From contig JAICXB010000031.1 in assembly GCA_025980765.1 (NCBI GenBank), positions 1 through 50,797 of the forward strand: 50,797 nucleotides of DNA, written 5' to 3'. The notes beneath the pieces were generated by a model. That model made no database searches. It was not told where the DNA came from and was given only the letters and a program-made list of their open reading frames with translations. Each line of letters opens with the position of its first letter. The stretch's first letter is position 1. Of the stretch, positions 12,684-16,689 are shown one piece after another. The position numbers were made by a program, and so were the translations under genes. Origin of the DNA: Terriglobales bacterium (GTDB taxonomy: Bacteria > Acidobacteriota > Terriglobia > Terriglobales > Acidobacteriaceae).

Positions 12684-12749
12684 AGGAAGCTGGCTTTCAG
12701 TGCGAATGTCGGGAATTCACTTCGCGAGCGCGAAGCCTGTTTAAGAGTA

Positions 12750-12814
12750 CCATCCGCGATAGCGGATGGGTCTGCTGGGGACCTGCGATGAAACCCATCC
12801 GCTACCGCGGATGG
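12750..12814. repeat. Two REP-like hairpins (CCATCCGC-N4-GCGGATGG)
   Basis: Perfect 8-bp stems with 4-base loops occur at 12750-12769 (loop GATA) and 12795-12814 (loop TACC), between the MgtE-like gene and the NRAMP gene. The same unit recurs at 15080-15163. It is a small dispersed palindromic repeat. It could also act in the mRNA between the two genes. Confidence 0.9.
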
Positions 12815-12830
12815 TAACCGTTGCTGCCCC

Positions 12831-14272: not shown

Positions 14273-14719
14273 ATGACCATCGATCGGGTCTCATACACGC
14301 TGGACTCAACGCTCGACAGCGTCAACAAAGCGGAGCAGGCAGCCGAAGAAGCCGCCTGCAAAATACCGTTTGAAGATGAGGACTGTCATCGGATCGCTAT
14401 GGCGGTTCGTGAAGCTGCCGTCAATGCAGTGCTGCACGGCAATGCCTACGATCCGAAAAAGAAAATGACGGTCTCTTTTGAGAACACCGGCGAAAGTTTG
14501 GTTATCAAGATTAGCGACCAGGGTCGCGGTCTCCGGGACGAAGATATTCCCGATCCCTTGGCGGAAGAGAACCTGCTGAAGCAGTCTGGGCGAGGGATTT
14601 TCCTGATTCGTTCTTTCATGGACGAAGTGCACTTCCGGCAACTGCAACCCGGAACCGAGATTACGCTGGTCAAACATATCGGCCACCCCTCAGGGTCGGC
14701 CGCGGAGGCATCAAAGTGA
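14273..14719 (+). CDS. RsbW-like anti-sigma factor / serine kinase (HATPase)
   Basis: A GHKL-type ATPase of the anti-sigma regulatory factor family, 148 residues. The N box AVREAAVNAVLHGN, the G1 box ISDQGRGL and the G2 region SGRGIFLIRSFMDEV are all present. In known systems such proteins bind a sigma factor and phosphorylate a STAS-domain antagonist on serine. The antagonist gene follows directly with a GTGA overlap, so the pair is a partner-switch module. The target sigma factor is not in the window, unless the ECF gene at 19656 is concerned, which has no direct support. Confidence 0.93.
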   Translation: MTIDRVSYTLDSTLDSVNKAEQAAEEAACKIPFEDEDCHRIAMAVREAAVNAVLHGNAYDPKKKMTVSFENTGESLVIKISDQGRGLRDEDIPDPLAEENLLKQSGRGIFLIRSFMDEVHFRQLQPGTEITLVKHIGHPSGSAAEASK

Positions 14720-15063
14720 CGATGAAAGCAAGCAATCGACGCGTGGATGGCGTCACCATTTTGGATCTAAGCGGACGCATCACTTTGGGCGAAGGCAGCG
14801 TAGTGCTCCGCGACCAGATCCGCGATCTGATCAGCAAGGGCGAGAAGAAAATTCTTCTCAATCTGGGTGACGTCACTTATATCGACAGCTCAGGCATTGG
14901 CGAGCTGGTCAGCGCATTCACCACGGTTCGCAATCAGGGCGGCGAACTCAAGCTGCTCAATTTGACCAAGAAGGTCCATGACCTGCTCCAGATCACCAAG
15001 CTCTATACGGTCTTTGACGTGAAGGACGACGAAACTTCGGCCATCAAAGCCTTCACAAAGTGA
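14716..15063 (+). CDS. STAS-domain anti-sigma factor antagonist (RsbV/SpoIIAA-like)
   Basis: A 115-residue STAS domain protein. The phosphorylation-site motif TYIDSSGIGELVSAF is intact; the second serine is the usual target of the RsbW-like kinase. LDLSGRITLGEGS and LLNLTKKVHDLLQITKL match the family's other strands. When unphosphorylated, such proteins sequester the anti-sigma factor. It starts at GTG 14716, inside the stop codon region of the kinase gene, so the two are probably translated in fixed ratio. Confidence 0.94.
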   Translation: MTMKASNRRVDGVTILDLSGRITLGEGSVVLRDQIRDLISKGEKKILLNLGDVTYIDSSGIGELVSAFTTVRNQGGELKLLNLTKKVHDLLQITKLYTVFDVKDDETSAIKAFTK

Positions 15064-15079
15064 AACAGCCGAGTCCGTA

Positions 15080-15163
15080 CCATCCGCGGTAGCGGATGAG
15101 TCAGTACCATCTGCGCTAGTGGATGGGTAAGATGGGAAACTACCGATCCGCTACCGCGGATGG
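15080..15163. repeat. Three REP-like hairpins of the CCATCCGC family
   Basis: Units lie at 15080-15099 (loop GGTA, last base changed), 15107-15126 (two base changes) and 15146-15163 (TACC loop, first two bases missing). They are the same family as at 12750-12814. They fill the gap between the STAS gene and the AhpD-like gene, so they could form hairpins in the STAS mRNA tail or the 5' leader of the next gene. Confidence 0.85.
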
Positions 15164-15171
15164 TACTGACT

Positions 15172-15696
15172 ATGCGCATTTCCCGCCTTGATCGCAATAG
15201 CGTCGACGAAAAGACTGCCGAGATTTTCGACCATTACCGGAAGGTTCGCGGCAATGTGCCGAACATGTTCCGCACCATGGCGCATCGTCCGGAGATCATG
15301 CGCTCCATGATTGCCCATTTCCGTGCGGTCATGGAAACCGGCACTGTTTCCGCAAAATTGAAAGAGTTGGTGATCGTGCGCACGTCACAGATCAACAACT
15401 GCGAGTATTGACTGGCCTCGCATACCGTCTTGGCAAGACGGCTGGGCTGGAGCGATGAGCAGATCGATCACCTGTCAGAATTCGAATCCCGCAGCGACTT
15501 CGACGAGCGCGAAAAGAGCGCTCTACGCCTGGCAGAGATCATGACGCGCAATCCACACTCCTTCGATGACGAGCACTGGAAGAATTTGCGTAGTCACTTT
15601 GATGAAGGCGAGGTCATCGAGCTGGTTGCGGCCATCGGTTTGTTCAACTACTTCAATCGCGTGAACGACCTTCTGAAGATGGAACCGACAAAATGA
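15172..15696 (+). CDS. AhpD-like alkylhydroperoxidase, probable selenoprotein (in-frame TGA at residue 80)
   Basis: Carboxymuconolactone decarboxylase / AhpD-fold peroxidase-related protein of about 174 residues, thought to use a CxxC redox pair. Translation from ATG 15172 runs to INNCEY, meets TGA at 15409-15411, and continues in the same frame as LASHTVLARRLGWSDEQ to the stop at 15696. The TGA stands exactly where the second redox cysteine is expected. Glu65, Cys77, position 80 and His84 have the same spacing as Glu118, Cys130, Cys133 and His137 of mycobacterial AhpD. A hairpin follows (15425-15441). The best reading is Cys-x-x-Sec; a nonsense mutation or base error is the alternative. Confidence 0.82.
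15414..15448 (+). promoter_or_regulatory. Candidate bacterial SECIS hairpin after the TGA codon
   Basis: Directly downstream of TGA 15409-15411 is a perfect 7-bp stem CCGTCTT / AAGACGG (15425-15431 and 15435-15441) with loop GGC. A lower stem GGCC / GGCT (414-417 with 445-448, one G-U) may extend it. The loop begins with G and lies about 20 bases after the TGA. Bacterial SECIS elements are hairpins within the coding region at roughly this distance, with a loop guanine read by SelB. Function is inferred. Confidence 0.65.
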
Positions 15697-15697
15697 A

Positions 15698-15829
15698 TCG
15701 GATCATCGGGTGATCGGGTCATCGAGTCAAGTTAAAACCGTCCGAAGGTGTTTAGTTTCATCTGCGGGGAATTGACCGGCTTCAGGGTTTTACTTCACCC
15801 GATCACCCGATGGCCCGATCACCCGATTG
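15698..15829. repeat. Inverted repeat of GATCGGGTGATC-type sequence
   Basis: The left arm (about 15698-15727) is TCGGATCATCGGGTGATCGG and on; the right arm (about 15797-15829) contains CACCCGATCACCCGATGG and on, its approximate complement. The arms lie between the AhpD-like gene and the convergent MerR gene and could serve both as a terminator. The right arm runs into the MerR reading frame and encodes its last residues. Confidence 0.7.
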
Positions 15830-16216
15830 ATTTTCAAAGATTCCCTTCCCGCATTGCTCGATCGCATCGCAGCGGCAATTGGTCTGAATCCTGCGCAGCA
15901 ACCTGCGCATTACTTCGATCTGCTCGACCATGGCGTCGAGCTCTGCCAATTTTTTTTGCGACACTTTCTGCCAGCGCCTTGAGATCGGAGTGCCTTCACG
16001 AAATCCAAAAAACAGTTGCCGGATTTCCTCGAGCGTGAACCCGCTCTGTCGCGCGCGTTGAATCAGCGCGAGCCGGTACAGCACATTTTTGTCATAACGC
16101 CTTTGTCCACTGCTGCGCTCGGCGGGAGCGAGAATTCCGATTTGCTCGTAATAGCGAATCGCCGACGGCCGCAATCCAACCTGCCTCGCCACTTCTGAAA
16201 TCAACATGCCTGACAT
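15803..16216 (-). CDS. MerR-family transcriptional regulator
   Basis: An N-terminal winged helix typical of MerR proteins, LISEVARQVGLRPSAIRYYE, followed by QRRYDKNVLYRLALIQRARQ and a dimerising coiled coil. The C-terminal effector region holds Cys-x-Cys-x5-Cys (NCRCDAIEQC), reminiscent of SoxR but lacking its first cysteine, so a metal or redox cue is plausible. The start could be ATG 16216 or ATG 16207. The last residues (QSGDRAIG) are encoded by a dispersed repeat and are probably not ancestral. It converges on the AhpD-like redox gene, with which it might share a stress role. Confidence 0.9.
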   Translation of the reverse strand: MSGMLISEVARQVGLRPSAIRYYEQIGILAPAERSSGQRRYDKNVLYRLALIQRARQSGFTLEEIRQLFFGFREGTPISRRWQKVSQKKLAELDAMVEQIEVMRRLLRRIQTNCRCDAIEQCGKGIFENQSGDRAIG

Positions 16217-16689
16217 GCGCACATCATAGGCGAACTGCCGGAGCCTAGTTCAAAGCCGAAACATTCCGGGCGGATCGTAGGTGCCGGCAGAGACGGGGCA
16301 TGCCGCCTCTCCTCATTCCGGTTATCCAGATATCGCGCGTGAATTCGACGCCTCTAGTTTTCGGAACTCATCTCTTCCAGGCCGCCATTTGGGGGAGCGA
16401 ACCAGAGTAAATTGTTCGACAGGAGCCGCGATGGGAAACGCCGCTACTGCGAAATCCAACATCACCGGAGTCGTGCCCTTGTTTGGCGTTTATCGTGAAT
16501 CCCAGACCATCGGTATAGAACTTCAGCGAAGCATAAACGGCACACCGGAGCGCGCGTAGATCTTCAGACAGCCGCCATTCCCTCCATTTCGATCCGGCGC
16601 TAGCTCTCCGCTTACATTTCTTTACACTCACGAAAATCTGCACAACACCGGGACAAGGACAGGGTTTGATCTGGTTGAGTGGAGGAGCC
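16217..16689. other. Non-coding stretch, nothing recognised
   Basis: About 470 bases between the divergent MerR and glycine-zipper genes. A 92-codon open frame (16281-16559) has composition and sequence unlike any family I know and no ribosome-binding site. Both promoters must lie here, but I cannot point to them. Confidence 0.5.

What the first reader, a model, noticed from the sequence alone, without database searches (positions are those of the whole stretch)
15172..15696. AhpD-like gene with TGA at the second redox cysteine: probable selenoprotein
The frame is uninterrupted from 15172 to 15696 except for one TGA (15409-15411), which falls exactly at the second cysteine of the CxxC motif (INNCEY-TGA-LASH). 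Glu65, Cys77, position 80 and His84 match the spacing of the catalytic residues of AhpD (Glu118, Cys130, Cys133, His137). AhpD-like families with Cys-x-x-Sec are already known from metagenomes, so the type has precedent, but annotation tools will split this gene into two. The rest of the protein is intact, which speaks against decay.
Basis: partly seen in the sequence, partly recalled or inferred. Interest (0 to 1): 0.93.

Follow-up and report, generated by a model that had tools for sequence, protein, structure and literature searches.

The report
Acidobacterial AhpD-like selenoprotein gene
This bacterial gene looks broken by a stop codon, but that codon sits exactly at the position of an active-site cysteine, is followed by a conserved RNA hairpin and is kept in dozens of relatives, so it is very likely read as selenocysteine to make a predicted peroxide-reducing enzyme of an already known family.

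Summary
The frame 15172-15696 is open except for TGA 15409-15411, at the second redox position of CxxC (C77-E-Y-U80), with E65 and H84 in AhpD spacing. Forty-three distinct sequences (this one and relatives 38-74% identical, mostly Acidobacteriota, some Eremiobacterota and others) have TGA at that codon; 46 have Cys. Twenty nt after the TGA comes the GGC loop of a 7-bp hairpin: all 7 pairs in 40 of 43 TGA forms, with compensatory changes, against a mean of 2.0 in Cys forms. The genome has tRNA-Sec, selB and a selD with its own in-frame TGA and a hairpin of the same geometry; selA was not found (assembly 84% complete). In the family, 19 of 19 genomes with the TGA form have at least two of tRNA-Sec, selB and selA, against 3 of 11 with the Cys form. 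It scores over the TIGR01926 cut-off; AhpD-like CxxU selenoproteins of TIGR01926 are in print, so this is a new member of a known kind. Less expected: Cys77 is kept in all 43 Sec forms but is Thr in 31 of 46 Cys forms, and a second AhpD-like selenoprotein gene sits beside selB in several relatives. Selenium insertion and activity are untested.

The parts
15172..15696 (+). Predicted AhpD-like (TIGR01926, CMD-fold) selenoprotein gene, 174 aa with Sec80
   Evidence: one internal TGA; Pfam CMD 63.2 bits, cut-off 23; TIGR01926 98.4 bits, cut-off 81.8; AlphaFold pLDDT 95.6, best Foldseek match 2prr, TMq 0.91
15409..15411 (+). In-frame TGA, inferred selenocysteine codon 80 (the Cys133 position of AhpD)
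   Evidence: TGA at this codon in 43 distinct sequences, Cys in 46
15400..15402 (+). Codon of Cys77, inferred resolving partner of Sec80
   Evidence: Cys in 43 of 43 TGA forms; Thr in 31 of 46 Cys forms
15364..15366 (+). Codon of Glu65, inferred catalytic glutamate (AhpD Glu118)
   Evidence: Alignments, (Gln in one TGA form, L047)
15421..15423 (+). Codon of His84, inferred catalytic histidine (AhpD His137)
   Evidence: Alignments
15425..15441 (+). Inferred bacterial SECIS hairpin: arms 15425-15431 and 15435-15441, loop GGC 15432-15434, loop 20 nt after the TGA
   Evidence: All 7 pairs in 40 of 43 TGA forms, mean 2.0 of 7 in Cys forms, synonymous control; covariation; model R1 61.5 bits (the sequence is in the model)
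14273..14719 (+). RsbW-like HATPase_c_2 (anti-sigma kinase-like) gene, upstream neighbour kept in many Sec-form relatives of the family
   Evidence: Pfam PF13581 94.0 bits; synteny; the name RsbW is inferred
14716..15063 (+). STAS-domain (anti-anti-sigma-like) gene, immediate upstream neighbour kept in many Sec-form relatives of the family
   Evidence: Pfam PF01740 61.9 bits; 17-236 bp upstream (between alignment ends) in 13 of 17 fetched family TGA loci

Best explanation
The frame 15172-15696 carries one in-frame TGA at position 80, where Cys-form relatives have the second redox cysteine, followed by a conserved 7-bp GGC-loop hairpin, and this TGA is very likely decoded as selenocysteine by the host's predicted SelB and tRNA-Sec, giving a predicted AhpD-like (TIGR01926) CxxU peroxidase-related enzyme. 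Shown: the position of the TGA, its conservation, the covarying hairpin, genes scoring as tRNA-Sec, selB and selD, and the co-occurrence of the TGA form with Sec machinery. Inferred: SelB binds the hairpin and delivers Sec-tRNA to the UGA; Sec80 attacks the peroxide (or another oxidised or halogenated substrate), Cys77 resolves the selenenic acid as a selenenylsulfide, Glu65, Tyr79 and His84 relay protons as in AhpD, and a thioredoxin-like reductant regenerates the pair. Also inferred: expression with the RsbW-like and STAS genes upstream, that is, a link to a stress-response switch.
For: TGA at codon 80 and no other internal stop. Of 396 genomes of the phylum, 29 have a match at E<=1e-38: 20 with one TGA, 9 with none. 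Of 47 loci in named genomes, 13 have TGA at position 80, 33 have Cys, 1 does not cover it. Hairpin: 294 of 301 possible pairs in the 43 TGA forms, against a mean of 151.7 (sd 6.9, maximum 180 in 2000 runs) when codons 85-90 are resampled synonymously; Cys forms mean 2.0 of 7. Covariation (43 rows, 42 distinct): 97.6% of cells paired against 33-54% for slid partners, 61 two-sided changes against 16.0 in shuffles, 0 of 500 as high. Geometry fits the published bSECIS model (loop 3-9 nt, G in the first two loop positions, 16-37 nt spacing; passages of PMC13188914). Own selD has an in-frame TGA and a 7-pair GGT-loop hairpin at the same offset. tRNA-Sec 64.9 bits, cut-off 47, anticodon tca; selB 376.8 bits, cut-off 242. 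Machinery: 19 of 19 TGA genomes have at least two of tRNA-Sec, selB, selA (13 have all three); of 11 Cys genomes 3 have all and 8 none over cut-off; Fisher p 2.8e-5, not corrected for relatedness. Fold.
Against: selA was not found in the genome, and the mnmE-selA neighbourhood of the same-genus relative is not kept there, so its absence is not explained by position. Folded alone, the region is not clearly more stable than shuffles (z -0.88, -1.01, 0.03; in the 65-nt stretch another fold wins); the bare hairpin is -7.4 kcal/mol against the model's limit of -7.5. Two of five covariation measures did not exceed shuffles (172 of 500 and 323 of 500 as high). Three of 43 TGA forms lack the full stem, L026 badly (2 of 7). 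Of the 19 TGA genomes four lack a tRNA-Sec match and one a selB over cut-off. The same-genus genome G054 has the machinery but no close orthologue. The RsbW/STAS neighbourhood was seen only in the window's family. No reads, protein or activity data.
Confidence: 0.95

Rival explanations
1. A sequencing error or recent nonsense mutation has made a pseudogene.
For: The assembly is a draft (95 contigs, 84% complete) and no reads were available.
Against: The same TGA occurs in 43 distinct sequences from many assemblies and several phyla, with a covarying hairpin that Cys forms lack.
Confidence: 0.02
2. The genome reads TGA as tryptophan throughout (a code-4 or code-25 type reassignment).
For: Three JGI metagenome proteins (P0002-P0004) have W at this site.
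Against: The RsbW-like and STAS genes and this gene itself end in TGA; Cys is the residue at this site in the 46 stop-free forms and in 112 of the 120 listed database proteins (5 more not parsed); hairpin and machinery fit Sec. The W readings are most simply an automatic code choice on short contigs (inference).
Confidence: 0.01
3. TGA is a real stop and the two halves are separate products, by reinitiation or as a two-chain protein.
For: ORF lists give two ORFs, 15160-15411 and 15430-15696, the second with a TTG start.
Against: The cut would sever the redox motif; residue 80 is Cys in all 46 stop-free forms and no TAA or TAG was seen at the codon; the hairpin covaries at bSECIS distance.
Confidence: 0.02
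4. It is a selenoprotein, but its reaction is not peroxide reduction: for example reductive dehalogenation, as in the AhpD-like debrominase Bmp8, or thiol-disulfide exchange.
For: Bmp8 (6ohi, 6ohj) is among the sequence and fold matches; TIGR01926 is named only 'peroxidase-related'.
Against: Bmp8 is not the closest match; uncharacterised peroxidase-related proteins and D. radiodurans AhpD (6k40) rank higher in fold. No test of substrate.
Confidence: 0.3

Closest known systems
AhpD-like selenoprotein family (CxxU; TIGR01926 in the 2026 review PMC13188914; COG2128 in the Sargasso Sea 2005 and GOS 2008 papers)
   Same: CxxU motif, TIGR01926 score over cut-off, bSECIS-type hairpin after the UGA, Cys homologues
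   Different: Lineage (Acidobacteriota and others here), RsbW-STAS neighbourhood in the window's family, frequent Thr at position 77 in the Cys forms; the listed example protein was not fetched for comparison, and that COG2128 and TIGR01926 name the same set is my inference
NF053654 YciW-related (seleno)protein
   Same: Second best NCBIfam match, 87 bits over almost the whole length
   Different: Far below its cut-off of 310 bits: not this equivalog
Mycobacterium tuberculosis AhpD
   Same: Spacing of Glu, Cys, Cys, His of the proton relay
   Different: Cys133 position is Sec; His132 position is Tyr79, as Tyr50 in PA0269; fold match to 1gu9 weak (E 0.17); no TIGR00777 match at E<=0.001 for this protein
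Peroxidase-related proteins 2prr, 2oyo, 2pfx, 3c1l and D. radiodurans AhpD 6k40
   Same: Closest solved folds, TMq 0.87-0.91
   Different: 22-29% identity; by their titles mostly uncharacterised; whether any is a selenoprotein was not looked up

Membership tests
Bacterial selenoprotein | In-frame TGA aligned with Cys of homologues | tested here: met
   43 TGA and 46 Cys forms at codon 80
[quoted passage not shown]
   7 bp, GGC loop, 20 nt; covariation (model). Energy: the bare 17-nt hairpin is -7.4, just short; the 50-nt stretch from the TGA is -16.5
Bacterial selenoprotein | Host has tRNA-Sec, SelB and SelD | tested here: met
   All over cut-off; of 14 control genomes 5, 2 and 2 are over cut-off for these models
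Bacterial selenoprotein | Host has SelA | tested here: inconclusive
   None found in an 84%-complete genome; the same-genus G054 and the 18 other TGA genomes of the family sample have it
Bacterial selenoprotein | Selenium shown in the protein | not testable with these tools
   Needs labelling or mass spectrometry
AhpD-like selenoprotein (TIGR01926, CxxU) | TIGR01926 score over cut-off | tested here: met
   98.4 against 81.8 bits. Of six relatives scanned five are over it; the diverged TGA form L116 is below, 68.5
AhpD-like selenoprotein (TIGR01926, CxxU) | CxxU motif | tested here: met
   C77-E-Y-U80
AhpD-like selenoprotein (TIGR01926, CxxU) | Hydroperoxide reductase activity | not testable with these tools
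   No assay
NF053654 YciW-related (seleno)protein | Score over cut-off | tested here: not met
   87 against 310 bits
NF041238 AhpD_rel_CFYUT (seleno)protein | Score over cut-off | tested here: not met
   41.8 against 175 bits

The most novel reading that the evidence does not exclude
This gene lineage is a natural experiment on what selenocysteine demands of its partner: while position 80 is Sec, Cys77 is locked (43 of 43), and after Sec is replaced by Cys it is freed and repeatedly becomes Thr (31 of 46 Cys forms, about four origins by parsimony), turning a CxxU selenenylsulfide enzyme into a one-cysteine enzyme with a new reductant or a new job. In the Sec form of the window's family the enzyme serves as the redox arm of an RsbW/STAS stress switch.
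Probability: 0.35. Interest if true: 0.6.

Novelty: new member of a known kind. Interest (0 to 1): 0.42.

Why it matters
The gene shows as two fragments in an ORF list, and as a Trp protein in some metagenome calls, so a conserved redox selenoprotein of a large environmental phylum is likely missed or misread in many annotations. The set of about 90 homologues with Sec, Cys-Cys and Thr-Cys forms would let one test what Sec does in an AhpD-type site, and the covarying hairpin is a clean example of a bSECIS with a fixed seven-pair stem and GGC loop.

Tried and rejected
Rfam at gathering threshold finds no family in the window; I take this as saying nothing against the hairpin. Folding the host sequence alone was not informative; the alignment was. 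selA by its neighbour mnmE: the neighbour in this genome is a gyrase-like frame (named by eye), so no explanation for the missing selA. The hairpin model R1 gives this gene in the own genome (E 9e-16) and then six matches at E 0.08-4.8; the two best of these lie in short open frames. R1 also carries sequence signal: 16 of the 25 Cys loci given match weakly at the cognate place (9.8-18.4 bits), and it did not list the selD element in L015, so it is a gene-specific model and not a general SECIS finder. The first motif tally of database proteins matched nothing and was redone in capitals with another pattern. Pseudogene, code change and two-chain readings were rejected for the reasons under rivals.

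The direction Sec to Cys rests on midpoint-rooted trees with long branches: four Sec/Cys changes by parsimony with a Sec root. Thr at 77 marks two clades, L088 and L118; parsimony leaves open whether the large Cys clade began as Cys-Cys or Thr-Cys. About 36% of tree length is in Cys or switching branches, so four Thr origins all falling there has a rough chance of 0.017; this is post hoc. L118 is a long branch, and L095 (27% identical, Chitinophaga) is counted among the Cys forms though it is probably not an orthologue.

Full report
Observation. With TGA read as Sec, window 15172-15696 gives 174 residues with one internal stop, TGA at 15409-15411, codon 80, inside INNCEY-U-LASH. Table 11 splits it into 15160-15411 and 15430-15696. 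E65, C77, Y79, U80 and H84 keep the spacing of the five-residue relay of AhpD (Glu118, Cys130, His132, Cys133, His137; passages of PMC3141380), with Tyr for His132 as in PA0269.

Family and fold. Pfam CMD 63.2 bits; NCBIfam TIGR01926 'peroxidase-related enzyme' 98.4 bits, cut-off 81.8; NF053654 and NF041238, both '(seleno)protein' models, score far below their cut-offs. AlphaFold gives mean pLDDT 95.6 and a helical chain without strands; the best solved folds are 2prr, 6k40, 3c1l, 2pfx and 2oyo, with the debrominase Bmp8 somewhat lower and M. tuberculosis AhpD weak. Sequence matches name the same proteins.

Conservation of the TGA. One search covered 100 genomes of the window's family; 93 have some match at E<=0.001, and I took the 30 best, all at 59% identity or more (L019-L048), as orthologues: 19 with one TGA, 11 with none. 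One further short fragment (G099, residues 36-96, 59%) was left out; G078 is in two pieces and G090 is cut. One search covered 396 genomes of the phylum: 29 matches at E<=1e-38, 20 with one TGA and 9 with none. One search gave 47 loci of named genomes; 13 have TGA at position 80, 33 Cys, and 1 (L094) does not cover it. The three sets overlap. After removing loci with identical surroundings: 43 TGA, 15 C77-C80 and 31 T77-C80 forms. TGA forms come from records titled Candidatus Korobacter versatilis, Acidobacteria, Thermoanaerobaculia, Candidatus Eremiobacterota, Candidatus Eisenbacteria and, once, Ktedonobacteria; bin labels of single loci may be wrong.

Hairpin. Counted from the T of the TGA, bases 17-23 pair with 27-33 around a GGC loop. 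All seven pairs form in 40 of 43 TGA forms, 38 with Watson-Crick pairs only; exceptions are L026 (2 of 7), L047 and L110 (6 of 7). The loop is GGC in 42 of 43. Resampling codons 85-90 synonymously gives a mean of 151.7 pairs of 301 (maximum 180 in 2000 runs) against 294 observed; Cys forms average 2.0 of 7. Pair counts: 97.6% of cells paired, six of seven pairs with two-sided changes, 61 such cells against 16.0 in shuffles; slid structures 33-54%. Two measures (pairs with two-sided change; further pair types) do not exceed the shuffles. A covariance model built from these sequences scores the window element 61.5 bits and the best of 25 Cys loci (of 46 distinct Cys forms) 18.4; 16 of the 25 match weakly at the cognate place, by sequence. 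The geometry fits the published bSECIS model (PMC13188914, passages).

Machinery. Own genome (G000, 84% complete): tRNA-Sec 64.9 bits, cut-off 47, also called by ARAGORN with anticodon tca; selB 376.8 bits; selD 369.8 bits with one in-frame TGA, which is followed by a seven-pair stem (one G-U) with a GGT loop at the same offset. selA none. In the 100 family genomes tRNA-Sec is found in 58, selB over cut-off in 60 and selA over cut-off in 66. All 19 TGA genomes have at least two of the three and 13 have all; the gaps are tRNA-Sec in G001, G060, G074 and G096, selB in G029 and selA in G000. Of 11 Cys genomes 3 have all and 8 have none over cut-off, one of these (G087) being only 73% complete. 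Fisher p 2.8e-5, uncorrected for relatedness. The same-genus genome G054 has all three but no close orthologue.

Evolution. The trees (88 rows, L048 left out as short; 86 rows without L095 and L121) place a well-supported Cys clade of 42 rows among Sec forms and a separate Cys form (L033) in a Sec clade; L088 and L118 are further Cys forms. All 43 Sec forms keep Cys77, whereas 31 of 46 Cys forms have Thr there, with Glu65 and His84 kept in the Thr rows. PMC3141380 (passage) says that a relative with Ser at the Cys130 position is taken to lack peroxidase activity, so the Thr-Cys forms may have changed function (inference). The three family Cys genomes that keep Sec machinery (G046, G019, G040) all keep Cys77.

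Neighbourhood. The RsbW-like and STAS genes lie just upstream on the same strand. Of 17 family TGA loci fetched with flanks (G090 was not fetched with flanks), 15 hold both genes in the stretch and 13 have STAS 17-236 bp upstream between alignment ends; the nested Cys form G046 keeps them, two members of the large Cys clade (G017, G019) do not. The 43 loci of named genomes tested (L051-L093; 12 of them TGA forms, some with short flanks) show none of the 12 neighbour genes tested at E<=1e-8, so the arrangement was seen only in the window's family. MgtE-, NRAMP- and NUDIX-like genes are often kept further out in that family. Co-regulation is inferred.

Literature. AhpD-like selenoproteins with CxxU were found in the Sargasso Sea (27 sequences, COG2128; PMC1088965, passages) and GOS data (299 sequences of AhpD-like 1, COG2128; PMC2398784, passages); the 2026 review lists 'AhpD-like protein, TIGR01926, CxxU' (PMC13188914, passages). 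Acidobacteria were credited with 4 selenoproteins in 2006 (PMC1794560, passages), and one acidobacterium with three known selenoprotein genes in 2025 (PMC12013277, passages; which genes was not shown). In the listings I saw no paper on this acidobacterial form, its Thr-Cys derivatives or the selB-side paralogue; these were listings with the start of abstracts, and the library lacks most subscription journals. That position 133 is the attacking cysteine in AhpD is recalled, not read here.

Verdict. Confirmed observation; selenoprotein with high confidence; known family; moderate interest because of the Sec/Cys/Thr series and the neighbouring finds.

Noticed in passing
L147-L164 (18 relatives, beside selB): A second AhpD-like gene (26-37% identical) lies within about 1 kb of selB in 18 of the 60 family genomes with selB over cut-off (a lower bound, as the match list was cut). 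Of the 18 fetched, 9 have TGA at CxxU with a stem and GTC loop of their own (7 of 7 pairs in 8, 6 of 7 in 1; L156 also has a TAA in the match), 7 have Cys (1-6 pairs; the one with 6 may be a SECIS relic), 2 are of another type with TGA. No AhpD-like match at E<=1 around selB in this genome (L123).
   Followed up: partly
window 15078-15165 and 12748-12816; genome-wide: A REP-like palindromic repeat (TACCATCCGCGGTAGCGGATG) has 42 copies with up to 3 mismatches in the genome (reversed-pattern control 1) and lies between STAS and the start codon of this gene.
   Followed up: partly
P0002, P0003, P0004 (JGI metagenome proteins): The three best-scoring database proteins have W where Sec is expected (CEYW), so TGA was probably read by a TGA=Trp code on contigs of 1.2-1.4 kb; 3 of the 120 listed.
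   Followed up: no
L015 (own genome C90): selD is itself a predicted selenoprotein with a hairpin of the same geometry.
   Followed up: partly
L165 (G054), L160 (G072): A third AhpD-like type with CPYU-x-DSH and in-frame TGA, in a same-genus genome among others; only 3-4 of 7 pairs form at the register used here, other registers were not tried.
   Followed up: no
window 15803-16222: A MerR-family regulator gene on the opposite strand lies just downstream.
   Followed up: no
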